NCBI GenBank assembly: GCA_013115135.1 | Contig: JABANP010000092.1 | Coordinates: 1 to 64,000 of the forward strand | Source of the DNA: Perkinsus olseni | Lineage: Eukaryota; Perkinsozoa; Perkinsida; Perkinsidae | Reading direction: 5' to 3' | Length of the DNA: 64,000 nt | Shown: positions 12,388 through 59,293 of the stretch, piece by piece | Layout: every line of letters begins with the position of its first letter | Position numbering within the stretch: the first letter of the stretch is position 1 | Notes under the pieces: model-generated | What the model saw: only the letters and a program-made list of their open reading frames with translations | The model's database searches: none | Told to the model about the DNA's origin: nothing | Made by a program: the position numbers and the translations under genes

Positions 12388-14356
12388 TTCATTCATGAGC
12401 CATCGATCGAAGGTCTCCTCATTCTCAACATGACGGAGCGGACGAGCGGTGTCCGAGAGGAAGTCAACAAAATCGGTGTTAAGTTTGATTCTCGACAGGT
12501 GTGCTGCGAAGTACTGCCCTTGGGATTGTCCCTCTTCGCCGAATGTATACGACCTGAGCTTGCGGAGTCGCGGTCCGAGGAAGTTCTTCACGATCTAATC
12601 CCTTTTCGCATAACCTGCTGGCGCCGGTGTAGCCAAGAATTTTCTACACCGATGGCAAAACGTTCAACATGCAGCGATCACAAATTAGCTGAATCGTCCT
12701 AATTTCTGATCTGATCAGGTTTCTGATGTGGACTTGATCAGATAAGCTGAAATCTTATCGTCGTACGCGCATGGTGAGGTGAGGAGCCTCTGCATCCCTA
12801 AGGCGGATCAAGGGCGACCTACCGGCTTATCTCCGGTCTAAGGCAGTGTCTACCCTTACGCACATCAGGACGACGCATAAACTCGTCCCAGTAACTAAAG
12901 ATACTCCTATGAATGTGATAGGCCGCCACGAGGTACCCTGATGGCCATCGAGATCTAACTTCAGCCCACAGCTCTGACGTCAGCATCCATCCCAGGCCTG
13001 GGAAGAAGTCCGTCCGGTATCTATCAAGGGGAGGTTAGCGCTAGGGAAGCCCAACCATGACGCCCGTACATCATCCTGGGGTCCTGTACAGCCGTCTCGT
13101 AACCGTTGTCGTTCCAGGCACTGACGCAGTAGAGTTTCGGATCTGTTTTCAGTAGGGGAAGGGAAGCGAGGAAATAGTTGAAGAAATCGGGGGCGATCTC
13201 CATGTCCTCCTCGAGGATGATAACCTATCAGCGGGCTAACGGTGTTCAAGAATTGCGGGATACTCGGAGGTATCTTAGCTCGCAGCGTGAGCGACAGCTC
13301 GATCCTGGGCCGGCAAAATGACCTCCCAGCAGAGGAAAGGTGTCCTACTAAGGCGAGCTCAAACGTATCTTGCCTGCTTGAAGCCAAGATAGTCGAACAT
13401 CCTTCCGAGAGCCCAGCCGTAGTGCTGAGCTAGCTTCTCGTAACCATTCCCATGCCCTTGTTCATGGCGCATGCTATATCTGATCGGACCGTCTCTCGAC
13501 GCCGTCGCCTCAGTGTTCTCACACTATAGACGACCATTGGGAATTTTCAAGGAGTTGTTTGACTCCCGGGTCGTGTCCATCTTGGGACACAACGATTGGC
13601 AGGTGGGTTGCTAAAAATGACCCAGCTGGGAGTAGAACCCGGGACCTCGCCCACCATCGGGACGATTCTTGGTGAACGACGTGAGGGCTCTGTCCAAGTA
13701 CTGAGCTCTTCTGCAGGCTATCACTAGGACGCCGATCAGTGGTGTGGACGATTCACTAGCTGCAATGGACGCCTTCAAGGTCTCCAAGTGCAGCCGTCCC
13801 TCGCGAGGCCCCGACCCTGCGCAAAAGACAAATGGCGTCGAGCTTGTCGGAACTTCGCGTCAACCTCGGATATTTGCGGCTGGCACGGGTGTCGTTATAG
13901 GCTTCGGCTTAGATTCTTTTCTCAAGCTGTCCTTCATCTCCGCGAGCTCCTCTTGGAGGGAGGCAACCTTGAGCGAGATTCCCCAACTGAGATAATCGCC
14001 ACAAGACCTGCCTTCTTTTTCAACTCGTCCCTCTCGCGCTCGTAATTGCGCATATCAGGCTCCTGGCCAAGTGGCATACTCTCAGGGAATGACGCTGAAC
14101 TTCGAGCGCCGTCTTCCTGAATGGAAGCTCCCATCTGGTAGGATGGTTTCTCCTACTTGGACTGACGAGCCCGCCATCATCTCCGACCACAGGACGCCGA
14201 TTTCACTGAAGGCGGTGGCTGAGCTCGGCAAGAGGCAACGAGTGTTGATTGTTACATTCCGATGCACAGAGTGACGGCAAGGACCAACAGCCCGAACCCA
14301 ATAGGGACCTTCCGACCGCGGCGGCTGCGGCTGCTGCTGGAGAATAATAACGGCAT
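12388..14356 (-). CDS. MGAT1: Alpha-1,3-mannosyl-glycoprotein GlcNAc-transferase I, multi-exon
   Basis: Type II Golgi enzyme that adds GlcNAc to the Man5 N-glycan core. The start at 14356 gives MPLLFSSSSRSRRGRK then a signal anchor (VPIGFGLLVLAVTLCIG), followed by a coiled-coil stem. Catalytic exons in phase: LIGVLVIACRRAQYLDRAL (about 13655-13740), LPIVVSQDGHDPG (to 13610), YEKLAQHYGWALGRMF (ends 13365), VIILEEDMEIAPDFF and CVSAWNDNGYE (13070-13224), YRTDFFPGLGWML (12937-13020), YWDEFMRRP and CLRPEISR (12823-12894), YTFGEEGQSQGQYF and RIKLNTDFVDF (12388-12553). The metal-binding EDD motif reads EED. The 3' end may lie in another exon below 12388. The stem exon joins are uncertain; catalytic joins agree in phase. 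Confidence 0.88.
13021..13069 (-). other. 49-nt intron in MGAT1
   Basis: Minus-strand GT...AG, phase 2, between QDPRMI and YRTDFFPG. Its acceptor is TTGATAG followed by ATACC, so the downstream exon starts ATAC. Confidence 0.75.
13611..13654 (-). other. 44-nt tRNA T-arm-like intron in MGAT1
   Basis: GT...AG on the minus strand, phase 1, joining RPD to ATHLPIVVSQD. Most of it is a T-arm-like sequence with GGTCCCGGGTTCTACTCCC, ending TTTTTAG. It belongs to the intron family described in the findings. Confidence 0.8.
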
Positions 14357-14399
14357 TCAGACAACAGAGCAACCAAATATTGCGCAAATCGTGTCCCCA

Positions 14400-15340
14400 A
14401 AAACGCAAAGGAAGCTGTGAAAATTGTGCAGACTGTCTCTCTTACCCTGTGGTCCTCAGGACACTCAGCGGATGGCTGAAGTATCCTCAAGCAAGTACGT
14501 GGTTGTGATCTTAATGATTGATCGGTCAGTACTTGTATACCAAGTATCACTCTTGTGGTTACCATCAGCCACCCACGTTGATATATATTATGGCAAAGAG
14601 TGGGTATTCTCTATCATAGTGGGTATTGATATTGTTATTGAGACAAGTCTGGACTGGTGTTTTCATCAGTCTAGTCCTGGAAGACCGTGGGATATTTTTT
14701 ACCGAAGGGTTCACAGAAGACGATCGACGCAAACAACCGTCGGTGACCGCCCTGTCGGACAAGATTTGTTCGTTCTCACCCACCCGCGGCATGCGTTCTC
14801 CGTCCGGCTATACTTCGTCTTTTTGGGCTAGGAGGTTTACTCAAACACCCTGTATCATCATCGAGCCAATTAGATCATCGAACAGGAGTTTCGTGAACTG
14901 ATCAACTCCATACCATTGCAACAGCAAAAACAGCAGCTTAGGGATGCTATACGGTACGTAACTAAGGCATGGATGGAGCTTCTTGCCGTTCGTGGGAGAT
15001 GAGATCTTCGATTTCATGTTGCAAGAGATGTACCTCAGCTTGAACCTGGTTAGACAAGGGGAAACCGATCATATCCCGTATTCTGATTTTCCATCTTTTC
15101 CGATTTGTCGACGAACACCGCAATTTTTAGAAAGTCGATCGAGGGCGGGATCCTGGACTCAATTGGGTCAGCGTACGAACAGGCGTGGCAATTGCGCCGC
15201 CAGTCGTACCATAACTCACCGAATTCCTGCTGTCAAGGCATACCGAGAGGCTATCATCAATGAATTTCTTGACATCTTCAAGCAGCCCGAGCAGTATCTA
15301 ACACCAAGACTTACGGTAACGAGACTTGTTTGATCACGAG
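14400..15340 (+). CDS. Unidentified possible multi-exon gene
   Basis: Several stretches read like coding exons: EQEFRELINSIPLQQQKQQL followed by a GTACG donor near 14955, then WSFLPFVGDEIFDFMLQEMY near 14975-15050, and a third near 15140-15260 (KSIEGGILDSIGSAYEQAW or, in another frame, AYREAIINEFLDIFKQPE). They are helical and charged with no domain I recognise. Frames, start and end are not resolved. Confidence 0.3.
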
Positions 15341-15838
15341 GAAAGATCTGCAAAAACCGGATTGTCTACTGCGCAGACTGGACCATCGCAGCAGCTGGAA
15401 TTTCTCGCGGTACAAATTAGTCCCGGAGGCATCACAATGAACGACTTCTGCTCATCTCACATGCAAGAGGCAGGGTAACCTCAACTCCGTGGCCTCCGTT
15501 CACGTTTCGACACTTTCAAGCATATTGCGCGAAGCAGACTTTGTCATAGTGTGACCCTACTAGGGTCCTGCGGACCCAAAATTGAACCATCCGCAAAAAG
15601 TACACAATGATTAGATCAATACGATATCATATCGTAAACAAACAATCCATTGATTTTTGCCGAGCAACTGTTCACTGGATGAATGATCGGTGCAAAACGC
15701 GTTTTTGCTCGGAAAACCAAAACCGCGTTTCCAATCTGTCGATGAAAATCCCCAACAATTAGAATCTTATATAGAATGCCTGCGATATCCGAGCACGTCG
15801 AAAAGATATCTTGCCCGCGGTAGACAAGGTGGCGGCCA
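15340..15838. other. No gene identified
   Basis: AT-rich stretch without a convincing frame on either strand. Confidence 0.4.
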
Positions 15839-17480
15839 CAAGGAGTCTGAATACCTGTCGCTTGCTTTCTTCTAACTGAAGGATGCGGTCAAGTTGAAGT
15901 TGAACTTCTCCTATCCCGTACGAGTTCAGAATACTCGGCAACTCGTAAGTTCCGCTCTTCAACCTAAGATACCCACTCATCACAACCTACGACCTCGCTC
16001 CCCACGCCTCCCACTAAGAGGCTCCCACGAACTCACGAGTTCAACCGCTGTTTCAGCCAGCAGATCGCCACGGGCCTCGCTCGCCCTCTTCCGCTCAGCA
16101 CAGCGTTCGATAAACCTCTCATGCCCTACACCCAGTTGCCTTCGCAACAGAGAGCTACTCAAACCCACTTTTCTTTTCCTGATGATATTCAGCCTGTTCG
16201 GCCTCGTGTCTGGCTTTGGTGTCTCTGTATACTTTGTCCAAAGACTGCACTTCAGCTTCCTGGGTATCGCGGACCGATACTAGGGCGAACTGAAGAACGG
16301 AGGACCATCGCCCGACGCATCATCCATTCGCAACGCCTAACATTCTCCTGTGCGAATCCTTCGAATATTTGCCTGCCTCGGTTCGCAGCTCGCTTGAAAG
16401 TACCTTCTCGAAAGCGTATCTTTCGAGGGTTTAACGATGGCAGAGGCACCCACTGTGGCTCTGATTGAGATCCCTCTCAAAGAATTATACATGGCTTGGC
16501 CCATGTCTATTTCTCGGCCTATCATTTCTAATGTGTATTTAGCGAGGGCATACCTGTTGCATAAGTGCAGCGAGTGAGGGTATCTTAGTTTACAGCTTAG
16601 CTCTTCCATGAGCGATCTCACGCTGCTTTGGTGCCGGTGCCTTTCGAGCTGAGAAGATAGCAATGGGAATCTCGCAAGTTTGAACATCTCAGCCAAGCTC
16701 AACGGTAGTTTCCTTGAGAGTCTCAAGATTTCTTCAACCCTCTTGAGTTTTGTAACGGTTTGAAGATGGGTGTACGCTCGGACCGCGTTTTTGAGTTTCA
16801 CTGCGACCTTTTCTTCAAGCAGGAGCTCAGTAAAACGAGCGTGTCACTCATCTATATCAAATGATCATTCGGTACCGTTGATTTCAGTCATCGCAGTCTG
16901 GCGGCAGTTGTGCTCACTCCCTCGGCATGTCCGTGGATCCCAAGTAGCTATGCGTTCATCGACGAGCTCCTCGATCGGTCGACCCCACAGGGACTTCTCT
17001 CCATCTACCAACAGCGACTTCGGAAATCCTAAACTCTAGAAGGGCAGCCTCACTCAGGCTGATGGACACCTCTTTGAGTGCATGGTAAAGCTGCTGGGCA
17101 GCAGACGCCAGGTCTTCCTCCTGTTCCGATCCATCTGTCAGCCCATCTGGAGGTGCATCGCGTCGCTTCGACACTTCCTTGACCAATTCTATCTGCATCC
17201 GTGAAGAGTTGAGAAAGGGGTTGAATGATCCGGATTCCGGAAACCCTCGGTATGGTCGAGAATAGGAAGGATCAAACTCTACAGTGTAAACTTTCTGCGC
17301 TGAAATTCCTGAGATGCCTCTTCCCTTGAAGATAGATTTGGTCGCATCCCGCAAGGTGATGCCGAGGCGGCTTCTTACAACGCGAGAGAGCTGTTCGACT
17401 CTCACTGCATTACTGCCCTCGCCAGTGGTCACTTGGGGTAACACGTGCCTGTCGAGTCCCTCACACCACGCGATGTGCAT
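15838..17480 (-). CDS. Unidentified helical/coiled-coil gene, several exons
   Basis: Minus-strand coding segments in order: about 17480-17040 (LSRVVRSRLGITLRDATKS, YTVEFDPSYSRPYRGFPE, ALKEVSISLSEAALLEFR); about 17000-16870 (KSLWGRPIEELVDERIATW); about 16850-16400 (RFTELLLEEKVAVKLKNAV, EEILRLSRKLPLSLAEMFK, IGREIDMGQAMYN); about 16390-16260 (IFEGFAQENVRRCEWMMRR); 16250-16170 (EAEVQSLDKVYRDTKARHEA); 16130-15987 (RFIERCAERKRASEARGD); 15963-15850 (YELPSILNSYGIGEVQLQLD). Composition is helical with coiled-coil character. I do not recognise a family. Joins are by eye; the 23-nt intron proposed at 15964-15986 is unusually short and carries GTATCTTAG as its 3' end. Whether all segments belong to one gene is uncertain. 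Confidence 0.5.
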
Positions 17481-17669
17481 GGCCCGATTCTCACTCTTCT
17501 ATACAACGTTGAGGTAGAGAGTAGCCGATTGATCGCAGTAGATGGCCTAGCTCCTTTATGTCCAGGCATCCTGAGTCGTCTTCGTCGTACGCCTCTGAGA
17601 GCCAAGCGTGCCGATTATAAGCTTATTTCTCGTGTCGAACGTTGGGTGTCCAACTGCAGTAGAATGGTA

Positions 17670-18351
17670 TGATTATGCGTTACGGTATGCAGACACCGCT
17701 GCGTCGGCTCTCAGGCTAAACTACACTAAGCCTTCGATTGCTCCATTCAATTTAGTATATCCTTCTTTCCGATGTGGAAGAGCAGCTGAGCATCAACGGA
17801 AGCGTCTGCATCGATGCAAGCCTGGGTGCACGGATTCTCCCTCACAAGGTGTTGAGCGTAGGAAAGGATCTTCTACGATGAGCTCAGCAGCGGAAGTAAT
17901 GACCGTAAATCCGAAGTGACTTGCAATTAACATCCACGCACTTGGTACGTACTATGCTCCGTCGTTCTCGAGAAATGCTTCGAAAAGAAATTGCTATAGC
18001 CTGGTAGAAAGCGAGAAAAATGGGTGAATTACAAATAAAGGAGAAAGAATCGATGACGGGCGCCTGGATTAACGCCATACTGAGCTTCTCTTTAAGTACG
18101 CTGAGGCCTGGAAGGCCTCCGAGATTCCAAAGAATCTTCGGGTGTCCGGGAGACTCACTGAAAAGCTCTTCGAGAGACATTGTTCTTTTGATGGTGCCCG
18201 TATGCTTCAACACCGGTTTGGATGCATACCCTGGGACACAAGGAAGCCAGAGTGTTTGTCCCATCAGCAGCAAGCGCCCACCTTGGGGGACGCCTGGCTT
18301 TCCGACGGCGCCATTGTCTGGCGGAGTGTCGAGATGATCGCCATTGTTCAT
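17670..18351 (-). CDS. Unidentified exons upstream of the coiled-coil gene
   Basis: Two coding-like stretches on the minus strand: about 18320-18080 (GVPQGGRLLLMGQTLWLPCV, GYASKPVLKHTGTIKRTMSL, EELFSESPGHPKILWNLGG) and about 17885-17760 (SYAQHLVRENPCTQACIDAD, DAQLLFHIGKKDIL). They could be 5' exons of the coiled-coil gene or a separate gene. No domain recognised. Confidence 0.35.
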
Positions 18352-18777
18352 TTCTATGAATTCTAATCACTATTGGTGGAATGAGAGGGGAGCATAACGG
18401 AGAGCGATAGCGAGTTGAGAAATTTATGGTACTAAGTCTTGATCATGTGGTCACTTCCGCGGGAAGGCATATCTTACGCCGATGATACGCTTGCACAGCG
18501 ACCTCCCATCATGCTTGCTTCTGCAGCCCCGTCTCAATCATAAGTCCTTCTTCTACACTCCCCACCGTGAACAGTGCTGATCTGACCAGCCTGGTCAGCC
18601 TCCTCCCGCGACTTCCCAGCTTCAAGCTTAGATACGCGTCGCTCCGCCGTGCCCCAACGAAATGCTCTACAACTCCCCGACACTATAAATCTTTCAACTC
18701 AACGAGAGTGATTGTAGAAAATACGCGGCGACTTGTGAAAAATAAGATATCAATTGTTACCACAGAACAGTGAATAC

Positions 18778-19027
18778 ATGAGCGTCCTCAACGAGACGTT
18801 TGGTACCAATCTAGTCATCATCCTCGAACCTGAAGGATGAACTCATACCACACCATACGAACTTCCTGCCGAAGCCTACCAGTGATAGGCGATTTATCAT
18901 TCCCCGCCAACCATCTTTCTATAGCTCCTCGCTCGTACGTGTGACCATCACACGCCACGGCTGGGGACCTCATAGGAGCTCGAGTGATCGGACACATGAA
19001 CGTGTCTGGATCTAGCCTGAACTCCAA
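18778..19027 (-). CDS. U-box E3 ubiquitin ligase (partial)
   Basis: The first exon (19027-18880) encodes LDPDTFMCPITRAPMRSPAV, DGHTYERGAIERWL and KSPITG, the N-terminal two thirds of a U-box, which recruits E2 enzymes. A 50-nt GT-AG intron (18830-18879, phase 1) leads to the second exon (18829-18778) with TRLVPNVSLRTLM, the end of the domain. The joined product has U-box length and order. The donor after LRTLM (phase 2) shows that more exons follow downstream, not identified. No ATG at the left edge of exon 1, so the true start lies upstream. Confidence 0.85.
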
Positions 19028-19029
19028 CA

Positions 19030-20342: not shown

Positions 20343-20486
20343 TTTTTCTCAGATATTACTCCTCCTCGGTCGCACAGTGGCTTCGTACGGTTTTTCTTAG
20401 ATATTACTCCTCCTCGGTCGCACAGTGGCTTCGTACGGTTTTTCCTAGATATTACTCCTCCTCGGTCGCACAGTGGCTTCGTACGG
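20343..20486. repeat. Three tandem 48-bp repeats
   Basis: Units at 20343-20390, 20391-20438 and 20439-20486, differing only at the bases after TTTTTC (TCAG, TTAG, CTAG). Because 48 is a multiple of 3, frames on both strands stay open through the array; none has other support as a gene. Confidence 0.95.
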
Positions 20487-21790: not shown

Positions 21791-21796
21791 CCATGA

Positions 21797-22012: not shown

Positions 22013-22469
22013 CAGGTGTGCCCTCTGGTATTACAATCCTTCGGCGCTGCCTCGGCGGCGATGGACTCCTATCATCCTCAGAAGAGCCTCCATCATCATC
22101 AGTAGTGGTATCTCTTTCATATCGAGAAGGAGAGTTACACCACCATTGGGGAGGAGGGAGAGGAGAGGGAGAGCCTACGACCGAAAAAAATAGGGTATAG
22201 CTGACATATCAAATGCGAGTTCGGAAAAATCCATCGAACTTCAATTTTTCCCATCTTCTTTCAGAGTGATGAGACCTCAGTTTTCATAGATGAATTTCAA
22301 GCTCGGCAATTCAAAGCAGAATGTCTCACCTCGCGTCCAGGGAGGGCCGCGCCAGACAGGACTGTCACGATCGGACCAGTTGGCGGCGGCAGGATTCCAG
22401 CGGGGCGGCGGTTCGACTGAAATGGGATGACAAGCCGATTCCCAGTCAACCGACGAGGCGAAAAACGAG

Positions 22470-22900
22470 GATTGTGGGAGTAGAACCTGCGACCTCCTAG
22501 TAAACCCCTAGCCCCTCTCTAATTAGCCTCGAGAAGCTCTCAGCCCTCCCATTACCATAGTCACTATCGCTATCATCATCACTGGAAGGGGGCGGTGGAC
22601 GCTCCAGGGGCGGCATCATCCCACCCATCCATCGCCGGGGAGTTCCTCTCCGCCAGGGAGGCGGCATTACCACCTACCAGACGATCAAGTACACCAAGGA
22701 CGTTCTTCCATCGAAAGGTCCCCGGATCGATCCCTGCAGCTTACACTTCCATCCTGCTCCTCCTCCGACGACTCTTCGTCGGACTCCTCCCACTCTTCCC
22801 AAGATTCGTCATCCGAGCTGATCGAATCTTCACGTGGAAACCCCGGACGACGACGATGAATATCCAAATAAACCGCGCCCCAACTCATAAAATAAAAAGC
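22470..22900 (-). other. Acidic coding-like stretch and two tRNA T-arm-like segments
   Basis: 22685-22888 on the minus strand reads SISSDDESWEEWEESDEESS, an acidic run that could be coding. 22468-22495 (minus) and 22708-22732 (plus) carry T-arm-like words GGTTCTACTCCC and CGGATCGATCCC of the kind found in introns elsewhere in the window. Confidence 0.3.
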
Positions 22901-27603: not shown

Positions 27604-27646
27604 CTAAATACCAAAAATCACCTCCACCGAGGATCGAACCCGGGAC
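27604..27646 (-). other. 43-nt tRNA T-arm-like intron
   Basis: Minus-strand GTCCCGGGTTCGATCC ... TTTTTGGTATTTAG with GT and AG ends. Same layout as the MGAT1 (13611) and DUF1764 (38827) introns. Confidence 0.6.
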
Positions 27647-28019
27647 CTTCTCGGAATCCTACTACGCCGATCACCTTCACTGTTACAAGGTATCATTCAA
27701 TAATAGAACTCTTTTCATGAGGTATCATTTCTCACCATCTTCGAGTACCACAACATCCGTAACTCTCAGAGTGCCCTCTGCTCACCTTCTTTTGTGTGTA
27801 ATCGCCTGGCCATCACTCCCATGGTGGATGTACTGGCAAGGGAGAACAGATCCCTCAATACCGAGGTGGACGGGAACTCATCAGCGAGAGAAACTAGACT
27901 GAGGGCAGAGAAGAGAATGACGAACTATCCACGATCATATGGCGCAATGGTTAAAAATAGTCCGCTAAGAGCTGACTAATAGGCTAGAGCCGACGGCTAT
28001 CACCAGTGTTATAAACTAG

Positions 28020-38786: not shown

Positions 38787-39489
38787 ATGGCGGCGACGGC
38801 AGCGAAGGCTAGTGTCAAGTCGAAGGGTGAGGAGGCCGTGGGTTCGATCCCTGCGAGGGAGATCTTTTTCAGGGAAGGAGATCAAGACGAAGGATATTCG
38901 GAAAAACGGCAAGAAAGCCGCACCCGTGCATAAGGAAGGTAATACTTGGTGGCGTAGTTGTTGACCTGTTTCGTATCTTTCACGGGTCAACCTCAGATAC
39001 CAAGAAGAGCGAGTCCTCTTCCGAGTCGATCGATGATATCTTCGGGGCATTGAAGAAATCCACGAGGTCGACCTCGACCTCCACAAAGACCAAAGATACC
39101 CCTAAAGAGCAGCAGCCTGCCGCCCCTCCCGACCCCAGGGCTCAGCGGACGATCCACTCGGACTCGGCAACCGCGCGGGAGGTGACCGGAAGCGAACCGA
39201 GGAAGGGTTATAAAATATATACTGAGGAAGAGCTGAAGATAGGACAGGGGGGAAGTAATAATAAGGGAAGGAATCTAGGCGTATCTTTTTTTCTGCGGGT
39301 TACTAGAGTCGACCTCCGCACTGTGGCTGCATATGTAGTTCGTGCCCCTAATTCAGCTAATAGTTATCCGTCGGTGGAGGAATCATTATTAGGAACTCGA
39401 CTTCACAGCTGGATCTCTCATACTCAGATTTTCCTGTTTTTCTATCAGATACTCCGGACTGTCCTTTCGACTGTTGGTGCTGTTTCTAG
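38787..39489 (+). CDS. DUF1764 family protein, 134 aa, four exons
   Basis: Exons 38787-38826, 38873-38938, 38997-39254 and 39449-39489; all three introns are phase 1 and the joins are exact. The product starts MAATAAKASVKSKGKEIKTK, is Lys-rich, has the conserved SIDDIFGALKK near residue 45, KGYKIYTEEELKIGQGG and the invariant ending CPFDCWCCF before TAG. DUF1764 is a small eukaryotic family of unknown, probably nuclear, role. Intron 1 (46 nt) is T-arm-like; intron 2 (58 nt) ends inside a palindromic element so that exon 3 begins ATACC. Residues KDTPKE come from an AAAGATACC word in exon 3. Confidence 0.92.
38827..38872 (+). other. 46-nt tRNA T-arm-like intron of DUF1764 gene
   Basis: GTGAGGAGGCCGTGGGTTCG then ATCCCTGCGAGGG and TTTTTCAG. 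Phase 1. Confidence 0.9.
38973..39000. repeat. Palindromic element covering a 3' splice site
   Basis: GTATCTT, then TCACGGGTCAACCT, then CAGATAC (right arm with one change). The splice acceptor CAG ends at 38996, inside the right arm, so ATAC is the start of exon 3. Confidence 0.85.
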
Positions 39490-40490: not shown

Positions 40491-40781
40491 CCAGCTCTAA
40501 TCAATACCTCACTTAAGTTCATTCAGTCTCAGTAGTCGGGCTAATTACCGATCTTCTCACTGCGCCACGAAATTCTGATGTATATGAAACGGTTGATCGA
40601 TTTTGCGTATCTTTTAAGATACGTTCCGATCGACGCTGGAGCTCTGATGGATGAAGGCTTCGAAGGGACGGAGGAGGACAAGCAGAAAGAAATACCATCC
40701 CGCGGTATGACAGACAATTTCGTGGCGCGCGGGAAAAATTGATCCTGAAATATCTTAGGTCCGATCAAGTACGATGTGCCC

Positions 40782-42248
40782 ATGGTTGACTTCAGTAGCG
40801 GGTCGAAAGATACCAATGAGGTTGAAGGAAATCGATCGAGTGATCGATCAAAGATACTCAATTTGGACGGCCAACTGGACAGCGCCCCCAAACGTTCTGC
40901 TGCCGGAGGCGATGCAGCGGCGACGTCCTCATCGTCATCGGAAGTATCCGGAGGTTGGCTCTTGTCGAAGTTGACGTGCGGACTAACACTTTCATATATA
41001 CAGGATAACTTCTTCGATGTAATAGGCCGTGGGTTCGATCCCTGGCGGGGGTATTTTTCTTGCATTTAACTCGCTGGGAATTTTCAGGTCACTTCTCGAG
41101 ACGTTGAAGGAAGACTTCTACTCGCCATATGGCCATACAGGTAAGACAAAAATTACCCAAAAAATTCTCCCTATTTTTCGGATTTTTTTCGTCAGATTGT
41201 CGCTCCTGTCGCCCTCATCTTCCCTCCAGCTCCCCTCTCCCGGTTCAACCGGTTCTCCCGAGGGCGGCCGAGTTGCTCAGTTTTTCACCCGACACTTTGC
41301 GGATTCCATCCAGCTGTTGTCTTCATTCCGAACCAATCCGGATCTCTGGGGTAGTAAAAAGGAAAATTTTTGGTTTTTTTATTCTTGGGGCTTCGCGGGC
41401 GTGTGTCGCATTTGGCACGATTGGCGCATGTGTACAGTTCGCTGGTGGCATAGACGAGTCTGGTAATTGGAAGGTCCCCGGATCGATCCTCAGCGGCGTC
41501 GTTTTTCCAGGCCCGTTCTGGATCTGCACTACCGCTGTTATTTTTCTAACCGCAACCGCAAACTTTTCTCGCCAATTGTTGAGCGGAGCGAAGCAGGGAG
41601 AAAGTTCATACGACTGATTACACTTTGGCCGGTAGGTCCCGGGTTCGATTCTGGGGAGCGGCATTTTCGTATCATCAGGCGTTAGCCGGAAATTCTCGCC
41701 CTGAATTCGTCAGCTTTTTTGATGGGGTGGAGTCCTTTAGTTTACTTCTCATTGGCAGAGAAATTAAGAAAACCTTCGCTGTGCGCTGAAAGATACGCGT
41801 ATCTTTTCTTCTATACAAGAAATTCTGTGTCAAAGGTATCCAAAATTTCCCGGAAATTTCACGGAAATTTTCTTTCAGGAACCGCGTGGCTTGTTCTATT
41901 CGGTGTTGTTATCCTCGCCCCTCTCATCACCCTCGGCCTTCTTCTCTGGATCACCAACCGAACTCAGCAGACGTCCGGCGACGACGAGACCGGCTGGTGG
42001 GACCGCCTACCTGCTTGGCTTCGCCCCGCTACTACTCGACACAACACTTATGTCATCGATGATGCTGCTACTAATGACGGAGGGAGCTACGCAGTGCCTC
42101 CGGCTCACGGACAGCAGGGCGGAGCGAAGGCGTCTTTGTGGTTGTTGTTGACCAGCTCGTACGGTTACAGCGTGGCGGTGATGTTACCGCTGTCAATTTT
42201 GTGGATGGTGCCTTTGGGATGGGTGAAAAGCCTAGCGTGCGGTCTCGG
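40782..42248 (+). CDS. YIPF1/2-like Yip1-domain Golgi membrane protein
   Basis: Exons 40782-41018, 41088-41140, 41196-41350, 41511 to about 41630, about 41710 onward, and 41879-42248. Phases agree for the first four. The N-terminus is Ser-rich and cytosolic; then IQDNFFD joined to VTSRDVEGRLLLAIWPYR, PDLWGPFWICTTAVIFLTAT (the family signature PDLYGPFWI), TM segments AWLVLFGVVILAPLITLGLL and YGYSVAVMLPLSILWMVPLG. Yip1 proteins bind Rab GTPases in Golgi traffic. The region between the first and second TM is less certain (a 19-nt intron would be needed to avoid a stop). The gene continues past a GTAAGT donor at 42249; a hydrophobic exon at about 42535-42686 may be the end. Confidence 0.87.
41019..41087 (+). 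other. T-arm-like intron 1 of the YIPF gene
   Basis: 69 nt, phase 0; contains GGCCGTGGGTTCGATCCCTG, nearly the same 18 bases as DUF1764 intron 1. Confidence 0.9.
41351..41510 (+). other. tRNA-like intron 3 of the YIPF gene
   Basis: 160 nt, phase 1; its 3' half carries GGTCCCCGGATCGATCCTC then GTTTTTCCAG, with possible box-A-like TTGGCGCATG further up. Confidence 0.88.
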
Positions 42249-46159: not shown

Positions 46160-47976
46160 CCTTGGAGCTGCTGATCATTCAGCATCTTCTGCACCCCAAC
46201 AATGGCAGCGAAAATAGCGCTTATGACGACCACCACCAGGAGGAGCAGCACTAAAGTCGATTGACGGCCTGAGCGGAAAAACTTCGCTCCGCTAAGAATT
46301 CCGTAGCGCCTACGGACCATGTTTTTCAACTGCCTTGGTGATGTAGAGCGTCCCAAGTAGAGCACCCAGGAAGGAAAAGAGGCCGTAGAGGAGAGTACTG
46401 TCGGACACGAGATGGCCTGATGATCATAATGAACATCTCCCGCAGAGATTAGTAGAAATGCGTAGAAGTCCGAGGCAGCCGTGATTGAAAGGGAATTTCG
46501 TGGCGCGCGGTCGGACCTTCCATAGCCAGCTGTCCTGCCGCGATACTGCTGGTCATTAATACTGCAATTGCGGAGGTCGCTGTAGCGACGGTAGGCTTCC
46601 TGCCGAGGCTTAGTAAAAGCGGGCCGAATATCATACCTCCACCAATGCCAATGACAGAGCATATGATACCACCGGAGAAGCTCAGGAAGGAGTAGGTCAA
46701 AACAGAAGGGCGACGCCGAGGTTGATGTGGGGGCTCGGGGGTCGGTACCACACTTGAGGGGACAGAAAGTCGACTACTTTGTCTGAGATAGGGTAAAAGA
46801 TTTTCCGAATCGATCGGCTGATCGATTATGACATCATCGAGATGGTCATGAGAACAGCTATGGCGAGAGCCAGGACAGCCCAGTAGGATGAGGAGCAAAT
46901 CTTGAGACCTACGACCAAAAGAGGCAACCTCGCCCGGTCGATGCGAATCTTCTATCTCACCAAGGATGGAAGGAGTTCTATGCCCGCCGAGGACGAGGGT
47001 TATCAACCAGACCATTACCCAGGATATTATCAGCACCGCGGCTGTCGCCCAAGAGTTGCTGTCGGAATCGACGCTAGTTTTGCATAAATCGAGATCGCCG
47101 ACTAGCGGTCTGTTCAACTCGTTAAGCTGCTCCTTCTTCCTGCAAGTGGTCCCAGGCTCAAATCTTCCCACCGGCATTTCTCACCTCGTCTTAATGAATC
47201 TTCCGAACGCCGAGTAAGCCACCCAGGCGAGGACGAAAACCGTGAGGAGGAGGATGAACCAATCGGGGCAAGATTTACTGATCAGAACGCCTGACAAAAA
47301 ACAAGACTTTTCCCGTCTTTTTTTCGGAAAAATTCCCGAAATTTCCCGATTTTCCCGCGGACCAATCATCGTTCCAGCATTAGCAGCTGGCACGATCAAC
47401 AAACAGGAGCTGTAGTCGACCAATCCGGACCTGAAATGACCGCTGCGCCACGAAATTACGGAAGCCACGCACCTTATGTTGACGGCAGCAAAGGTGACGA
47501 GCGTGACGGAGAGGGCGGCACTTTGATGAGCCTCGAGGGGAGTCGCGAGACCGAGGATGCCGCTGTTGAGGAGTGGGACGAAGACACCACCACCGCCGAC
47601 GCCTGAGAACGGGAGTTGCGTTGTATCCGTGTATCAAGCACGGTGGTACAACGCAGCTGGCAAGTTGACAAACAATCGACGGAGATACATGGGAAGAATG
47701 AGAAATTGCGAGAATTGAACAGTGAGAGGAAAGAACGTTTCTGAGCCGACCTGCCGAGATGCAGAGGGTGCTGATGATCGAGAAGATGAGGGCGACGAGG
47801 ATGGCGTCCAGAGGGCCTCCATAGGGGACGTCTGAGGGGAGGGCGAGATGACGAGGTGTGGCCAGTTGAAAGTTCTTCGGGCCACCTGCCCCAGCCGGGG
47901 TGAGCTGCCCTGTAGCCTGACCAGTGACGGCGAGTGGGAGAGTTACGAGAACCACAAGGGAAGGGAGAGATGACAT
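46160..47976 (-). CDS. TauE/SafE family membrane transporter, nine exons
   Basis: Exons (minus): 47976-47751, 47602-47473, 47430-47363, 47290-47185, 47139-46961, 46908-46833, 46782-46517, 46416-46318, 46268-46160; every phase agrees. A signal-like start MSSLPSLVVLVTLPLAVTG is followed by the first TauE repeat (GVGGGGVFVPLLNSGILGL, VDYSSCLLIVPAANAGTMIG) and, after a long hydrophilic loop, the second (CSVIGIGGGMIFGPLLLSLG, ATATSAIAVLMTSSIAAGQL), then LYGLFSFLGALLGTLYI and LVLLLLVVVVISAIFAAIVG. The family exports sulfite or organosulfonates. The last exon may continue past 46160. Introns are mostly 42-150 nt. Confidence 0.9.
47140..47184 (-). other. 45-nt intron of TauE gene, T-arm-like in reverse
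   Basis: GTGAG...TTGCAG; the T-arm-like word GGTCCCAGGCTCAAATC lies on the opposite (plus) strand, so the family occurs in both orientations. Confidence 0.7.
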
Positions 47977-49699: not shown

Positions 49700-49739
49700 C
49701 GAAAATGAAGTAATAAGGTCAATGATGAACTAAGGATAG

Positions 49740-51480: not shown

Positions 51481-51488
51481 TGATCCTT

Positions 51489-52661: not shown

Positions 52662-52669
52662 TCACACTG

Positions 52670-53930
52670 TAAATAAGGAAAACGGCGAGCTGATAAGGAG
52701 ATTGTCCTTGACTTATGCAGATGTATTGAGGATTATCTACCAAGCTTAGGCGACATCTTGGCTGTCTCCCCGAGTGTCACCAAACCCAGAAGAGAAACCC
52801 AGAAGAGTGACACTCTTCAAAGAGAACCCCAAGCTGTTGTGATGGCCCTCATTTATCGCCTTAACGCCTGCGTACACGACAGCACGCAGTCGCAGGGGTC
52901 GGGTCACAGCCTATAACTCAAGCGATTCGTTGGAACTGATACTCCCGAATAGCGTTCCGAAGGAAGGAGAGCATAACAGATGACCGAGCAAGAGTGAAGA
53001 GAGTGTTGATCCACGCTATCCTCACGGACGCTGAAGGCGGAAAGGAAGGCCTCAGTCAAGCTCAGCATGGCAAGCTGCGGGACATAACCTTTGTCCTATT
53101 TGGTGATGTCCCCCGGAAAATGTCCCCCCCGAGACTGACTCCGGGAGGATGTTAATCCTATTTAATTCGTTAACGCTGGTAAAACAGGAAGATTGCTCAC
53201 CTCCACAAAAATTTCATCGTCGCCTCTGCGAACCCAGGCGAGTCTTTCGGAGAAGCAGTTGACACTGGCTTGTGTCGTAAGTCATCCCTCTAGGGTCTGA
53301 CGCTGAGCGTCACAAACAGGGACACTAGCGCCCACATTCTCTGATGTCTATGCTACGGGTTATCCGTTAATTGTTTCAAATATTTCCGGGAAAAATTTGC
53401 AACCCAAAAAATTTTCTCGCTGCGCTGTCTTCTCAAGCCGGTGATTTCCTAGGCAGTCCCACCCAACCGTGGGCTCGTTGCCGCTGACTGCGAAGCAAAT
53501 TCTCTCCCGCATCCGGGCTCGCGGACCACCACGGGTGAAGTGGTTTTTGCAACATGGCCGTGCTTTCGCAACTTTAACTTTTGCAATTGTTGCGATCTAC
53601 GACGGTCAAAGCCGCTTTTTGCAAGAAAGCTATTCTGTTGTCTAAACCCAGGAGCAATGTCCGCGTTGCGCAAATGTTTCGCTTAGCCGTCACTTTTTCC
53701 CATGTTGGATGTCTTCGGCGAGTCAGTCGTTCGGCAAACGACGCACATGGGCGAGTTACTCACCGTGACTCACGGTGTAAGCCGTCAGTAATACTCACGG
53801 TCCGTGAGTATTACTGACTCACCTGCTCACCGTGACTCCGGCGGACGAATACAAGACAGCACTGCGTTATCATGACAGAATAGCTGGTATCGAGACTGTC
53901 ACAGCCACTACCCCACTGAGACAGTGTGAC
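52670..53930. other. No gene identified; palindromes near 53.78 kb
   Basis: Non-coding except for weak frames; see the two palindromes listed separately. Confidence 0.45.
53761..53818. repeat. Two adjacent palindromes
   Basis: 53761-53777 CACCGTGACTCACGGTG (8-bp arms) and 53784-53818 with perfect 17-bp arms (GTCAGTAATACTCACGG) around one base. Confidence 0.95.
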
Positions 53931-53932
53931 CG

Positions 53933-54217
53933 TCACATTTTCGACCTACACTCTACCTTCTCGCTTCCATTTGAAATGGACCATTTCCTAGCAGCCTCCG
54001 CACTCGCGCTTCTCTTCTCATACTCATATTGCTGCTTCTTTGCTATCTTCTGGAGAATATCTCTGCGCGCTCTCTCTTCTTCCGCAGTCAGTGGGAAGTC
54101 ATCATCAACATTGATTGAACCTGCTATTGGCCGCTTCTCCGACGACCCGGGAATGAGGGAAATGGGAAATTTCCGGAAATGGGGGGAAATGACGACTCGG
54201 AAATGGGACTCGATCAT
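53933..54217 (-). CDS. Unidentified charged exon
   Basis: Minus-strand frame with SINVDDDFPLTAEEERARRD then ILQKIAKKQQYEYEKRSASA, an acidic-to-helical segment ending in a stop at 53933. Composition suggests coding, possibly a terminal exon. Confidence 0.4.
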   Translation of the reverse strand: MIESHFRVVISPHFRKFPISLIPGSSEKRPIAGSINVDDDFPLTAEEERARRDILQKIAKKQQYEYEKRSASAEAARKWSISNGSEKVECRSKM

Positions 54218-54487
54218 ATTCGAAGAGCCGCTATCACTCTCTGGAGTCTGAGGTGGTAATTGAGAGCAATCGGCTTCACCACTTTCAGTGTCATAAACGT
54301 CTAGTGCATCGTCGTCATCATCATCTCAGGCATCACCCTCATCTATTTGATGTTGCAGGAAATTTCCGGTGGTAGCAACATCGTGCATCTCCTTTACGAG
54401 TTGACCACAGTCTGTGGTCCACAGAGGGTAGCGGAAGACTTGTCCGCAGTGACAGTATCAGTTGAGTGGTTCAATAAGCATCAGCTG

Positions 54488-54600
54488 CTATAGAACAGCA
54501 ATATCCGTCTCTTTTGGGACTAACTTGACTTTCGGTTCCAACTGCTCGGGCGCTAGGCAATGCCTTTCCCACCGAGGGAGGTTACGACTGGGTAGGTTAT
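54488..54600 (-). CDS. Unidentified C-terminal exon
   Basis: After an acceptor-like CTACCCAG the minus strand reads NLPRWERHCLAPEQLEPKVK then LVPKETDIAVL and a stop. No family recognised. Confidence 0.35.
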
Positions 54601-54916
54601 CAGCCTTGATCGTTACTATCCGTAGCCGTAGTGACGGTATCGTCCGTAGCCGCAGACTGCGGCCCGCAGTTACAGCTGTAGTAGCTGCAGTAGCAGTAGC
54701 GGGACTCGCTCTCCAGGCACGAGACGGGAGCGAGAGGGAAAGTCTTCCGAAAATCTGAAACGGAAGTTTCACTCTTTTCCCGTCTCGCTGATTCGCCGGC
54801 GCTGGAGTATCAATCAAGTTGATTGATCATCAATCATTGATACTTCACTGAGAGTGCCGTTGTTATCGCCGAGGTTTTTAGCCGAGTGGAAGTAGCGACG
54901 TTCTGAGAAGCGGAAA

Positions 54917-57530
54917 TTGAGTGAGGCACAATTTCGGGTTGATCCTACCGTCCTGACGTTTGTTAGGACTTCGCGGCATGTTTTGAGAGAACTTCGGGCC
55001 TACTGGCAACTTTTATCAGGGCTCAAAGCAACCTTGACTTCCTGCTTCGCTGGGAGGACGACTGTGCCGAGAGAACCTCTCCGTCGAGAGAACCCCTCCG
55101 TCGCACGTCCCGAGTATACAACCATCCGCATGTTACAGTCCTCCTCATATTCGGACTGTATATTGAGGTCAATCCTCCCGCCCTAACACCCTTTCGCCGT
55201 GGCGTTCATATCTCGGCTTGCCTTCGTTTTCTACTTCGAGGGAAGACTTCCCTGGGAAGTCCCCCCCCCCCTGAGGACTCCTCAGGATCCTTGGGGATCA
55301 CAGCAATATCCATTGGCGCCACCTACCAAGCATACATATCGAGGCCATCGAGCTGTAACTTGCAGCTTGCAAGCACGAGCACCCACACCTCTCTGGCCAC
55401 CACCGCTCTCTTCTCATCGCCGCGACTGTCTGAGCAGGCTGGATGAGGGCGCCATTGAGCAACCATGCTATCAACAGACTAACAACTCTAAACGGACACT
55501 GAGAGAGAACTAGAAACTACGTCGGTGCACTCTTTTAGAGTGAAAACTGCGATTCGGTACACGCTTAGTGTACACTAACCCAGTGTCACTGACTCAGCGA
55601 CAAGGAGGAGGATCGAGAGGAGAGACTAAGAACTCCTACTGTATATACCGGTGATCTCAGATTCACTATGCTCTCCACACAGGGTGATACTTGATTGAAT
55701 CAAGTTGATTCTGTTTCGAAGAGTTTTTTTCATCTGTATGTCACATACAGTATGTGTCCAGCAAACTCTCCTGAGCCTCAAATGCAATGAAACTGACTCA
55801 ATTTACACATCTCATTCAAGTCACTTAGTTTAGTGAGCCGGGCCCACTTGGGTGGCAATCTTATTCCTCAACCTCATCGTTAATCTCCCAGCAATCTCGA
55901 AACAGCATCGTTCTCGGCGATTTTCTTTGAGCTCTTTGTTGAACAGAACAAAAACTCGCCGGTGGTAAGTTCGACGTAATTTCTCGCCGTCGAGGGCAGC
56001 GTCGCGAGCCTTTTTACTCTCAGTGAGAGCCTCTCACCCTCCAGCGGAAGACAGGAAGTTCAGCGTAGGACCTTGATAAAATTCCTTCATTCGACCTCTT
56101 TCTTCGGCCACATATGCGATACTCCGGTGAGCCCCTGCAGACAAGTCCGTTTTTTCAAGCCGAGGTCCTACAGAGGAAGCCAATCATCAGTTAATAACAA
56201 TAATTGCACGACCAGTTGCCTATCATTCTCTCTCCTCTTCGTTGAGACTCTCAATGAGGGGCCCTCATGCACTCTTCGTGTATTATGGATTGCCGCAATC
56301 CGATCGCGATATCACTCCCAAATCCGCTTACTTTGTGTCACAAAGTTTGTGAGATAGTGGTGCCGTTCTAATCCGGTTGTCTTGCATTTTTGCTCTCTAA
56401 TCTCCCCGTAGTTTGCCGATCGCCCTTCGACGCCTATTCTGAAGTTCACGCCCTGGAAGTACCTGCTATTTTCAATGGTCATCTGAGCAAGCTCGGCCTC
56501 GTTATGATGAGGACCTCGGTCTCCACTGATTTGATTACCTGCGCCAGTGTCGTACCGGAGCTCATCCGCAAGCGTTATTCATCTAGGGGTACCTGCCGAT
56601 GCAGATAGGAATCCGGAGCTACTTTTGACTACCAGGAGAAAAACACATTAGAACAATCCGCAGGCTCGATACTCGATCTTAACTGTCTGGTGGGCCGGCG
56701 GCTCGGAGCCGCTGTTTTCGGGTACTAGTCCGAGAAGCGCAGGATTTCAATTTCAGGGAGGATGAAGAATGATCAGTGAATCAGCTTTGGCAGTGCGGTC
56801 TCCTTCTCTGGCGAGTTGACAGCTGAGATATTCTTCGCTACAGCGCTTCAATTGCCAACCACTCCGGCAATGAATCCAGAGGGATACTTGGGCTGAAGGA
56901 ATAAAAACTGGCTAGAGGGCGATGTGCGTTATCCGGTCATGTGTGAAATCTCCAACTTGAAGATTATGAGGTCAATGTTTTTAGAGAAAAACATAGAAAG
57001 AAAATTTCTGTGTTACACAAATTCTAGCCGAAGAGTCTTCGGCCATCCTTGCCCCTGAGCACCATTGTGCATGAACTACGTATGCTGCTCAGGGGCTCTG
57101 AGTCAGGGCTGTGAACGATGTTGCCCTCGGTATTCTTTACGCCAGTTGGTCACAGTCGGCTGTGCTTCCTACACAGTTGCGAACATACACGGCCCTTGTG
57201 ACAAGGAAAACCCTTGCTACAAGAATCACGAGAATTCTTGAAGAATAGACTATTCTGAATAGTACTCTCAGAACGGAACGCCGTTACTCTCGAAGGTTAT
57301 CCCCGCGTCACCGACGCGGGGCCAACAGTGTTAAGCCAACACAATTTGAGTTGGCAATCATCCACTTAGTCTCTTGCACATTGTTGAGGGCGTCGTAGTA
57401 CCCGGCGTAGGGTTTAGTGGATTTTGTTTCGGCTCGAGTATGTAGAACCAGTCCGCGACTGACGAAAAATACGGGCCAATATGAGAGATACAGTAAAAGA
57501 GTATCGACCAGCCTTCACCGCGCCACGAAA
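54917..57530. other. Mostly unassigned
   Basis: Two plus-strand stretches look coding: 54920-55020 (EAQFRVDPTVLTFVRTSRHV, LRELRAYWQLLSG) and 56410-56590 (YSEVHALEVPAIFNGHLSKL, TSVSTDLITCASVVPEL). No family is recognised and no joins are certain. The rest holds nothing I can support. Confidence 0.3.
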
Positions 57531-57613
57531 TTAACTAACGCTGGACGATAATCTCCAGAAACAAGAAAATAATACAAGCAGTAGTGAATTTTAAAAGAAA
57601 AACATCATCACAA

Positions 57614-59293
57614 TCATCCCAATCCAATTTTACGAAACTTCGCTCCGCTGTTGTTACCAACTTTTTCGCAACTTCTTGCCGCCTTCCGCGCTGCCACTTT
57701 CTCTTCAACCCATTCAGCCAATCGCCCCCTCCGATGGTCAATCAAATTCCTCCAACCACCGTCGTGATTGAGAAGACACGAATATTTTTCAACCATCATT
57801 TTAGATATCTTTTCGACCTCACCATCGAAGTGTGAGGAAGGCCAGCTTATCAGTCGGCGCTCCTTGCAAATCGTCGCCACAAAATTTGATACTGTCCGAT
57901 CGACCGTCGTCGAACTGCAGGAACTCGAGGCCTTAGGAGGCTGCTCGAAGGGTCGATGATGATCGTTGGCTAGATAATTTTGTGGCGGGCGACGCTGCAT
58001 GGGGTAAGTTTGCGGCGCGTGACGCTGCTCTGTAGGCGGGGGAGCTCCCAAGTAGCTGAGCCCCCTCAACGGTTGCCGTATGTTCTTCTGATAGACCGTC
58101 TGAGCGCCCAACAACTGCGAAAGAGAAAACCTTCCCGCCGTAGGCGGCGGTAGGGTATCTTTCACTTGTGTATCTTCCCTGGTCGACCTCAACTCAAACC
58201 GAGCTGCCTGCCTAAGCGTATCTTTCACGCCGTCATCTTCAGAGTCGCTACCACCCTTCATCGGTCGCCACTGCACCGCTTGCCTCGGCCGTCCAGCCCC
58301 TCCTTCTCCTCCTTCCCAACGTCCGTGCCTCCTCCTCTCCTTCGGGACTGCTCCCAACAGGAAGTCCTCCTCAGGCACTTCCCCTCTCCCGATTTCAACA
58401 TCAACTCCGGCGGTTTTCAACTTCGCCGCTGCTGCCATCTTCCCGCCCGCCGAGAGCCTCGCAAGACGGAGTGCCTTAAAGTGAAGGGGTACAGAGTGGA
58501 CTGATGGCCAGAGGTCGGAGCTTAGCTTTGACAAAAGAGAAGATACTTCTCCAACCTCCATCGGATTAAGATTCGTTCCGGAGACGTCGAGGTCGGATAG
58601 AAACCATGTAACTTTGGACTGCTTCGCTCCGCTAAGTTTATCGAGTTTCTTATCATAACTCACTTGAGCCGACTTCAACGACCTCAAGATTTTACAAATC
58701 ATCTTGCCGGTGGCGACTGTGTTATCGGCGAAGTCCAGCTGAAAATACCCTCGTGTCGGAACGCGTTCAGCTTCCCATACCACTCCTTCCTCAACTAATA
58801 CCTCCCTCCAATTCAGCATGGCCTCTACCACTCCTTTCTTAACTTCCCTCACCAACCCGCTCTCATCCCCCGCATGCCCATCAACAACACTGTTCGTCAC
58901 GCCTATCCGAATCGCAACCTCCCAATTTTGTGGCGCAGTGACGGTGATATACGTCGGCAATACGACCACTGACTTCTTCTTTCGCGACTTTTCCTTCGGC
59001 GTATCTTTCACTTCCTCTTCTTCTTCTTCCTCCTCCTCGCTGCTAGTGCCAAGCTCAACAATTTCTTTGCTCTTCACTTCGCACGGCAAAGATTCGCTCG
59101 GCAAAGATTCGCTCGGCAAAGATGCGCACGGCAAAGATTCGCTCGGCTCAGCACTCGAGCTGGACGCAGCGGGCGATGACTCTGTAGAGGAGATACTCTC
59201 CTCCACGACAGGAGGAGGGAGATGGCTACTGTGCTGGGGACAAAACACCTGACAAGGGATCGAACTTGCGACCTCGCGAGTGCCAACTGCCAA
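57614..59293 (-). CDS. Unidentified 559-codon frame, low complexity, repeat-laden
   Basis: Minus-strand frame without an ATG at its left edge (TTG), so 5' exon(s) are missing. Order: Ser/Glu-rich start with SLPSESLPSESLP repeats and a run of nine Glu; a central region (ITVTAPQNWEVAIRIGVTN, YFQLDFADNTVATGKMICKI, LNPMEVGEVSSLLSKLSSDL) that looks folded; a Pro/Arg-rich linker; and a helical end (DGEVEKISKMMVEKYS, LAEWVEEKVAARKAARS). VKDTPKE, VKDTLRQ and VKDTLPP are each encoded by the AAAGATAC word, VTAPQN by the GCGCCACAAAATT word, and SGAK twice by AGCGGAGCGAAG. A 39-nt T-arm-like unit (59234-59272) interrupts the start and may be an in-frame intron. Function unknown. Confidence 0.6.
   Translation of the reverse strand: MAVGTREVASSIPCQVFCPQHSSHLPPPVVEESISSTESSPAASSSSAEPSESLPCASLPSESLPSESLPCEVKSKEIVELGTSSEEEEEEEEEVKDTPKEKSRKKKSVVVLPTYITVTAPQNWEVAIRIGVTNSVVDGHAGDESGLVREVKKGVVEAMLNWREVLVEEGVVWEAERVPTRGYFQLDFADNTVATGKMICKILRSLKSAQVSYDKKLDKLSGAKQSKVTWFLSDLDVSGTNLNPMEVGEVSSLLSKLSSDLWPSVHSVPLHFKALRLARLSAGGKMAAAAKLKTAGVDVEIGRGEVPEEDFLLGAVPKERRRHGRWEGGEGGAGRPRQAVQWRPMKGGSDSEDDGVKDTLRQAARFELRSTREDTQVKDTLPPPTAGRFSLSQLLGAQTVYQKNIRQPLRGLSYLGAPPPTEQRHAPQTYPMQRRPPQNYLANDHHRPFEQPPKASSSCSSTTVDRTVSNFVATICKERRLISWPSSHFDGEVEKISKMMVEKYSCLLNHDGGWRNLIDHRRGRLAEWVEEKVAARKAARSCEKVGNNSGAKFRKIGLG
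59234..59272 (-). other. 39-nt tRNA T-arm-like intron candidate
   Basis: GTCGCAAGTTCGATCCCTTG ... TTTTGTCCCCAG on the minus strand, length divisible by 3, phase 0. Confidence 0.65.

What the first reader, a model, noticed from the sequence alone, without database searches (positions are those of the whole stretch)
13611..59272. A family of micro-introns made of a tRNA T-arm-like sequence
Introns in unrelated genes share a B-box-like core, GGTTCGATCC or close variants, followed by a T-run and AG: MGAT1 13611-13654 (44 nt), 27604-27646 (43 nt), DUF1764 38827-38872 (46 nt), YIPF 41019-41087 and the 3' end of 41351-41510, a candidate at 41631-41709, and 59234-59272 (39 nt). In the shortest ones the T-arm plus acceptor remnant is almost the whole intron. 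A TauE intron (47140-47184) has it in reverse. MGAT1, DUF1764 and the first YIPF joins are fixed by phase and family sequence. Similar introns at unrelated positions is the hallmark of introners; a tRNA- or SINE-derived introner of this size would be new to me.
Basis: partly seen in the sequence, partly recalled or inferred. Interest (0 to 1): 0.9.

Follow-up and report, generated by a model that had tools for sequence, protein, structure and literature searches.

The report
tRNA-tail repeats inside Perkinsus introns
A marine shellfish parasite carries well over a thousand copies of a 35-letter DNA repeat that looks like the tail end of a tRNA gene, and many copies make up most of a tiny intron, which suggests an unusual source of new introns.

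Summary
The window is Perkinsus olseni or a near relative. The word is real. AGGTC-N3-GGTTCGATCC-N11-ATTTTT, which equals tRNA positions 44-73 plus a Pol III terminator at exact tRNA spacing, occurs 1,459 times at up to 3 mismatches (true tRNAs included); the reversed control gives 5. The unit is 35 nt: sequence information is near zero outside it, with no target-site duplication. Copies at unrelated places share variants, so they were copied. Many copies form about two thirds of a short GT-AG intron. Joins are supported by protein homology for MGAT1, a dynein, two SNF2 genes, a WD40 gene and TauE. Both orientations occur. Two reader sites fail: 59234-59272 (true intron 59249-59459) and 27604-27646 (no supported gene). 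It is not an intact tRNA: T-stem pairs do not covary. Recent gain is not shown: 20 of 20 scorable duplicate copies keep the insert, and the TauE and YIPF introns are shared with an unnamed relative. Eleven dynein paralogs lack the dynein intron. Best reading: an old introner family with a tRNA-3'-end-like core.

The parts
13611..13654 (-). 44-nt element intron in an MGAT1 (GNT-I) gene, element sense at 13613-13647
   Evidence: Pfam GNT-I spans the join, E 7.3e-10; matrix 36.5 bits
38827..38872 (+). 46-nt element intron in the DUF1764-like gene, element sense at 38833-38867
   Evidence: predicted at these ends by a gene finder blind to the motif; matrix 31.0 bits; no homologue checked
41019..41087 (+). 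69-nt element intron in the YIPF gene, element sense at 41024-41058
   Evidence: open frame across the join; the same intron read through in relative P0069
41351..41510 (+). 160-nt intron in the YIPF gene with the element at its 3' end, 41472-41506
   Evidence: in-frame join DLW^GPFW; exon end NPDLWG in P0069; matrix 34.7 bits
41634..41668 (+). element copy between YIPF exons; intron ends not established
47140..47184 (-). 45-nt intron in the TauE/SafE gene with the element in antisense (element strand +, 47147-47181)
   Evidence: P0006 and P0007 are spliced exactly here; orthologous unspliced intron of the same length in P0009; matrix 17.5 bits
59249..59459 (-). 211-nt intron of a RING-type gene whose 3' end is an element remnant (59240-59274 by matrix)
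27614..27648 (-). element copy, no supported intron
   Evidence: matrix 38.1 bits; no open spliced frame in sense
22716..22750 (+). element copy, possibly antisense in a gene
   Evidence: matrix 28.2 bits; antisense spliceable score 12.2, not verified
22461..22495 (-). element copy, context unknown
   Evidence: matrix 24.8 bits
45846..45880 (-). element copy, context unknown
   Evidence: matrix 23.7 bits
46038..46072 (-). element copy near the TauE gene 3' end, context unknown
   Evidence: matrix 28.1 bits
62978..63012 (-). element copy, context unknown
   Evidence: matrix 20.5 bits

Best explanation
An old family of introner-like elements. The unit is 35 nt and has the layout of a tRNA gene's 3' end: variable loop AGGTC, T-loop/B box GGTTCGATCC, 11 mostly free positions, then C/T-A and five T. 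It spread by copying (shown by shared variants at unrelated sites; the machinery is unknown and left no target-site duplication that I could detect). When it lands in a coding exon, sense or antisense, it can be removed by the spliceosome: in sense the T-run acts as the pyrimidine tract, the first AG after it becomes the acceptor, and a GT a few nt upstream becomes the donor (the layout is shown; the roles are inferred). Insertions that are spliced out survive, so genic copies are found as short introns. The copies tested here are old and fixed.
For: Abundance and exact spacing. By my count 91 of the 100 places listed have the 11-nt gap that a tRNA would have. Sharp 35-nt unit. Copying: pairs with at most 3 differences at 11 variable positions, 24 seen against 10.9 expected in 47 unselected loci and 149 against 59.4 in the 97 unique cores, none of 1,000 shuffles reaching either. 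Intron status: joins spanned by GNT-I, SNF2 and dynein matches, by WD40 and, below Pfam's cut-off, SNF2 matches for two antisense copies, and by TauE gene models. Spliceable sense context 20 of 75 against 7.8% of 600 random places, P 9e-7; 12 of 47 unselected loci, P 2e-4. Layout: 24 hand-curated sense introns, median 52.5 nt, 8 nt before and 6.5 nt after the unit, first AG after the T-run used in 23 of 24. Gain: 11 dynein paralogs run without a break through the intron site, 3 of them read.
Against: No empty allele found: 39 joined sites searched, 20 of 20 scorable duplicate copies at 11 sites keep the insert, one (C705) unscorable; each search scored only its 31 first-look candidates. No target-site duplication, fresh or decayed. 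Antisense spliceable context is not above chance as a class (10 of 75, P 0.07). The T-run lifts the acceptor score, so part of the sense excess is built in. A plain coding-bias test over 58 copies showed nothing. The TauE and YIPF introns are shared with a relative, so those are not young. Paralogs without an intron could have lost it; one dynein paralog (C59) may have an element-free intron there. The curated introns were chosen by frame and by eye, which favours the first AG.
Confidence: 0.52

Rival explanations
1. A constrained splicing or gene-regulatory motif, not a mobile element: the T-loop word supplies a branch-site-like TCGAT and the T-run a pyrimidine tract, and selection keeps it in a subset of introns.
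For: Position-specific conservation: in 47 one-mismatch copies 15 of 16 changes inside the B box fall at 57, 59 or 60. A58 lies 22-49 nt from the intron end, median 26.5. The core is recognisable in a relative's TauE and YIPF introns.
Against: Clear genealogies among copies at unrelated sites; many copies have no supported intron; ordinary introns here show only a weak excess of TYGAY in the branch zone, 13 of 97 against 7.3 +/- 2.5; the spacing matches a tRNA, which splicing does not require.
Confidence: 0.17
2. Short mobile element that lands in existing introns as well as elsewhere; it does not create introns, and the host intron later shrinks back to the usual size.
For: Element introns are about as long as ordinary short introns here; copies also occur outside supported introns; element at the 3' end of longer introns (160 and 211 nt).
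Against: In the shortest introns (42-47 nt) almost nothing is left of a host intron; 11 dynein paralogs have no intron at that site; spliceable sense context is about three times the random rate.
Confidence: 0.17
3. Genuine or decayed tRNA genes, or TFIIIC-binding B-box sites kept for their own function.
For: Layout and conserved positions match tRNA 3' ends and a B box plus Pol III terminator; the genome is rich in tRNA-like candidates; two elements in L018 give weak tmRNA matches (16.4 and 9.7 bits, cut-off 47), a family of the tRNA clan.
Against: ARAGORN finds 1 tRNA in 20 and 0 in 20 motif loci; Rfam at E up to 10 reports no tRNA-family match at the elements in the window or in six sampled stretches that carry them; T-stem pairs 49-65, 50-64, 51-63 pair in 41, 70 and 41 of 97 copies, the shuffle means being 45.8, 71.1 and 41.5; no clearly conserved position upstream of 44.
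Confidence: 0.09

Closest known systems
Introners as surveyed by Gozashti et al. 2022 (PMC9860276; outline, sections 7 and 8 and passages read)
   Same: Similar sequences at many unrelated intron positions; families of 5 to over 2,000 copies; median lengths 30-654 nt, so this size is not new; some families lack TSDs and TIRs; splice sites may be taken from flanking sequence.
   Different: The tRNA-3'-end layout is not mentioned in the main text (0 hits for tRNA and 0 for Perkinsus; supplement not read); no recent gain shown here.
Introner elements of Amoebophrya (Farhat et al. 2021, PMC7789003; passages read)
   Same: Repeated introns in a basal dinoflagellate relative.
   Different: Those are defined by inverted and direct repeats in introns with non-canonical splice sites; here no target repeat was found and the introns examined are GT-AG (chosen as such).
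tRNA-derived SINEs (recalled; only search listings seen)
   Same: B box, T-run terminator, dispersed copies.
   Different: No A box at a fixed place, no body, no tail, no target-site duplication; 35 nt only.
Fungal introner-like elements thought to spread by reverse splicing (as described in PMC9860276 section 8)
   Same: No TSD or TIR.
   Different: Here only an inner 35-nt core is shared; intron ends differ from copy to copy, unlike a reverse-spliced whole intron (inference).

Membership tests
Introner | Similar sequences in introns at non-homologous positions | tested here: met
Introner | Multi-copy family in one genome | tested here: met
   1,459 places at up to 3 mismatches against 5 in the control; true tRNAs included
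Introner | Intron present in one copy and absent in another (gain) | tested here: inconclusive
   11 dynein paralogs lack it; 20 of 20 scorable near-identical copies keep theirs; two introns shared with a relative
Introner | TSD or TIR (found in only part of known families) | tested here: not met
   TSD: longest shared words 4.90 against 4.83 expected; decayed-TSD identity 25.4% against 24.4%. TIR: judged from the consensus only
Introner | Removed from mRNA in RNA-seq | not testable with these tools
   no RNA-seq held
tRNA-derived SINE | A box and B box at the start of the element | tested here: not met
   B box present; no clearly conserved position from -60 to -6 before the unit in 58 copies. 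Loose A-box words in those 60 nt: 18, 12 and 6 of 58 for three patterns, against 7, 6 and 9 downstream and 13, 5 and 3 in the reversed upstream, a weak and mixed signal
tRNA-derived SINE | Target-site duplication | tested here: not met
tRNA gene | Cloverleaf with paired T-stem | tested here: not met

The most novel reading that the evidence does not exclude
tRNA-gene 3' ends were turned into a self-spreading 35-nt intron-making cassette, working in both orientations, in which the TFIIIC B box and the Pol III terminator double as splicing signals (branch-site-like core and pyrimidine tract), and which is then held by selection across Perkinsus species.
Probability: 0.25. Interest if true: 0.87.

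Novelty: new variant of a known kind. Interest (0 to 1): 0.66.

Why it matters
How new introns arise is a long-standing question. Most known introner families show at least one sign of DNA transposition (PMC9860276, section 8). A unit this short, without detectable target duplications and with the layout of a tRNA gene's 3' end, would point to another route, and the copy number makes it testable with existing Perkinsus genomes and RNA-seq.

Tried and rejected
Intact tRNAs or a longer SINE: rejected. T-arm as conserved RNA structure: rejected, no covariation. TSDs: none. Empty alleles among duplicates: none in 20 scorable copies. In-place constraint on the B box in duplicate pairs: 4 changes in 140 B-box positions, 21 in 350 other core positions, 88 in 1,967 flank positions over 14 pairs; too few to decide. 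Flank coding bias: over all 58 copies no sense excess (32 of 58, P 0.51); sense excess only in the 28 T-run loci (20 of 28, P 0.036), where the T-run was part of the selection. A branch motif in ordinary introns: weak only. A copying test on all 75 loci was set aside because some loci had been chosen for repeated words; one search repeats it on unselected sets. SNF2 paralogs as an empty-site test were inconclusive. RF00005 in the genome scored only 63 of 7,618 first-look candidates, so tRNA number is unknown.
Full report
What the sequence is. One protein of the window is 91% identical to P. olseni FOL46_008465 and 57% to a P. chesapeaki protein, so the window is taken as P. olseni or a near relative. 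The whole assembly (61.5 Mb, 968 contigs) can be searched.

Is the word real? GGTTCGATCC occurs 1,682 times on both strands against 97 for the reversed word. Adding the tRNA variable loop, AGGTC-N3-GGTTCGATCC, gives 508 against 0. Of these, 333 have A at the position of the tRNA discriminator; a quarter would be chance. GGTTCGATCC followed 8-16 nt later by ATTTTT gives 181 against 0, and by my count 91 of the 100 listed places have the 11-nt gap of a tRNA. The full word at up to 3 mismatches gives 1,459 against 5. These counts include true tRNA genes. ARAGORN called 1 tRNA among 20 and 0 among 20 of the fetched motif loci.

What the unit is. In 58 copies scoring over 18 bits, sequence information is high over 35 positions and near zero on both sides: 0.23 bits at most upstream (at -1) and 0.24 downstream (at +2) within 60 nt. 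The unit reads AGGTC, three variable positions, GGTTCGATCC, eleven mostly variable positions ending in C or T, A, and five T. This is tRNA positions 44 to 73 plus a terminator (tRNA numbering is recalled). The conservation of the fixed letters is partly a product of how copies were found. The three free T-stem pairs are formed in 41, 70 and 41 of 97 copies, no more than after shuffling. The T-arm is thus a sequence pattern here and not a kept structure. Changes inside the B box in one-mismatch copies fall at 57, 59 and 60 in 15 of 16 cases, the positions that also vary among tRNAs (recalled). Loose A-box words upstream give a weak and mixed signal.

Was it copied? At 11 variable positions, loci with unrelated flanks are more alike than shuffles allow: 24 pairs with at most 3 differences against 10.9 expected in 47 unselected loci, and 149 against 59.4 in the 97 unique cores, none of 1,000 shuffles reaching either value. 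Some pairs in the second set may be haplotype copies. I read this as descent from shared sources.

Are the introns real? No RNA-seq is held. Support comes from proteins. Spliced MGAT1 matches GNT-I across the join, a sampled gene (L018:3306-3352) matches the SNF2 domain with E 4e-27, and another (L040) the dynein AAA_6 domain with E 6e-34. For MGAT1 there was no PDB match. Antisense copies sit in an intron inside the SNF2 word LTG^TPIQN (L128, Pfam E 0.002, below the family cut-off), in a WD40 gene (L068; the join was refitted by hand) and at the end of a WD40 repeat (L102). For TauE, two P. olseni gene models are spliced exactly at 47140-47184. Of ten spliced proteins, four had no Pfam hit and several hits were weak or did not reach the join; of nine valid ones, five had none. 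A motif-blind gene finder trained on 264 kb predicted short GT-AG introns and recovered 38827-38872, 47140-47184 and L027:9861-9914; these three are the element introns among its 100 introns of 38-85 nt. That is about 3% of short predicted introns in a set that includes the window, which was picked for having it. Published cDNA work on P. marinus reports GT/AG introns from 39 to 1,622 bp, mostly under 100 bp (PMC3101222, passages), so the sizes are normal.

How the unit sits in introns. In 24 sense introns that I curated by frame and by eye (42-69 nt, one of 160), the median length is 52.5 nt, with 8 nt before and 6.5 nt after the unit; 23 of 24 use the first AG after the T-run. A58 then lies 22-49 nt from the intron end, a usual branch-site distance (recalled). 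That the core and the T-run act as branch site and pyrimidine tract is inference. In antisense introns the donor can overlap the reversed T-run (GTGAGAAA..), as in TauE and L102.

Enrichment. A spliceable, open, coding-like sense context scores over 7 at 20 of 75 independent copies against 7.8% of 600 random places; in the 47 unselected loci it is 12. The T-run of the element lifts the acceptor score, so part of this is built in. The antisense class is not above chance (10 of 75, P 0.07). A plain flank coding-bias test over 58 copies showed nothing. In 200 kb of unselected sequence 10 copies were found, of which 2 are well supported introns (L027:9861-9914, L018:3306-3352).

Gain or old? Eleven dynein paralogs read without a break through the site where L040 has its 56-nt intron; a twelfth (C59) stops there and may hold an intron without the element. 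Against recent activity, 39 joined sites were searched in the assembly, and all 20 scorable copies (8 at 5 sites, 12 at 6 sites) keep the insert; each search scored 31 candidate places. Proteins P0009 and P0069, unnamed and from a source labelled lgn, are 47% and 61% identical to the TauE and YIPF queries over half and two thirds of their length and look like translations through unspliced introns. P0009 has 15 extra residues at the TauE join (the intron is 45 nt), needing at least 10 changes in 48 nt where shuffled peptides need 25.4 on average and never below 14; P0069 matches the YIPF T-arm with 3 changes in 27 nt where none of 300 shuffles got below 5. So these two element introns are shared with that relative and their cores are well kept.

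Corrections to the finding. 59234-59272 is not the intron; the exon starts at VFCPQHS and the intron is 59249-59459 with an element remnant at its end. 27604-27646 has no supported gene. 41631-41709 holds the element but its ends are unsupported.

Comparison. Introners are known from many eukaryotes, with families of median 30-654 nt and some without TSD or TIR (PMC9860276, outline, sections 7 and 8 and passages; its supplement was not read). The main text has no hit for Perkinsus or tRNA. Amoebophrya introners are defined by inverted repeats (PMC7789003, passages). A search for Perkinsus with introner gave one paper, the Amoebophrya one; further searches showed no report of a tRNA-derived introner in the rows listed. 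The library lacks most subscription papers and all preprints.

Verdict.

Noticed in passing
window 47431-47472 (-), 40705-40758 (+); L027:7487-7530 (-); 15 matches of TT[CT]GTGGCGC in the 264 kb, 14 of them in the window: A second short dispersed word, AATTTYGTGGCGCRGTGA, occurs in introns and elsewhere: ATTTYGTGGCGCGCG 919 times genome-wide against 0 reversed. Its TGGCGCAGTG part resembles a Pol III A box (recalled). In the TauE intron it reads as ISWRSG also in relative P0009, so it is conserved there.
   Followed up: partly
window 38966 (+) and 61549 (+): A third shared word, GACCTGTTTCGTATCTT, in an intron of the DUF1764-like gene and at 61549, where it runs into a B-box-like GGTTCGACCC.
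   Followed up: no
L049, L050, L051 (C88, C161, C263): The element lies inside a longer repeat that is 99% identical over about 390 nt at three places.
   Followed up: no
L059 and L060: Two loci share 97% identity from about 18 nt upstream of the element through the fetched downstream part (233 nt in all), but their upstream flanks differ, a break just 5' of the element.
   Followed up: no
G000, whole assembly: Several loci occur in two to five copies at about 91-99% identity (haplotypes or recent duplicates).
   Followed up: partly
P0003 (P. chesapeaki): The deposited protein joins the RING-type gene and the TauE gene into one model; in this window they lie about 10 kb apart.
   Followed up: no
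window 7277-9804: Five tRNA genes in 2.5 kb, Thr twice. P. marinus has over 500 copies of five tRNA types and Dada transposons in tRNA genes (PMC3706591, passages).
   Followed up: no
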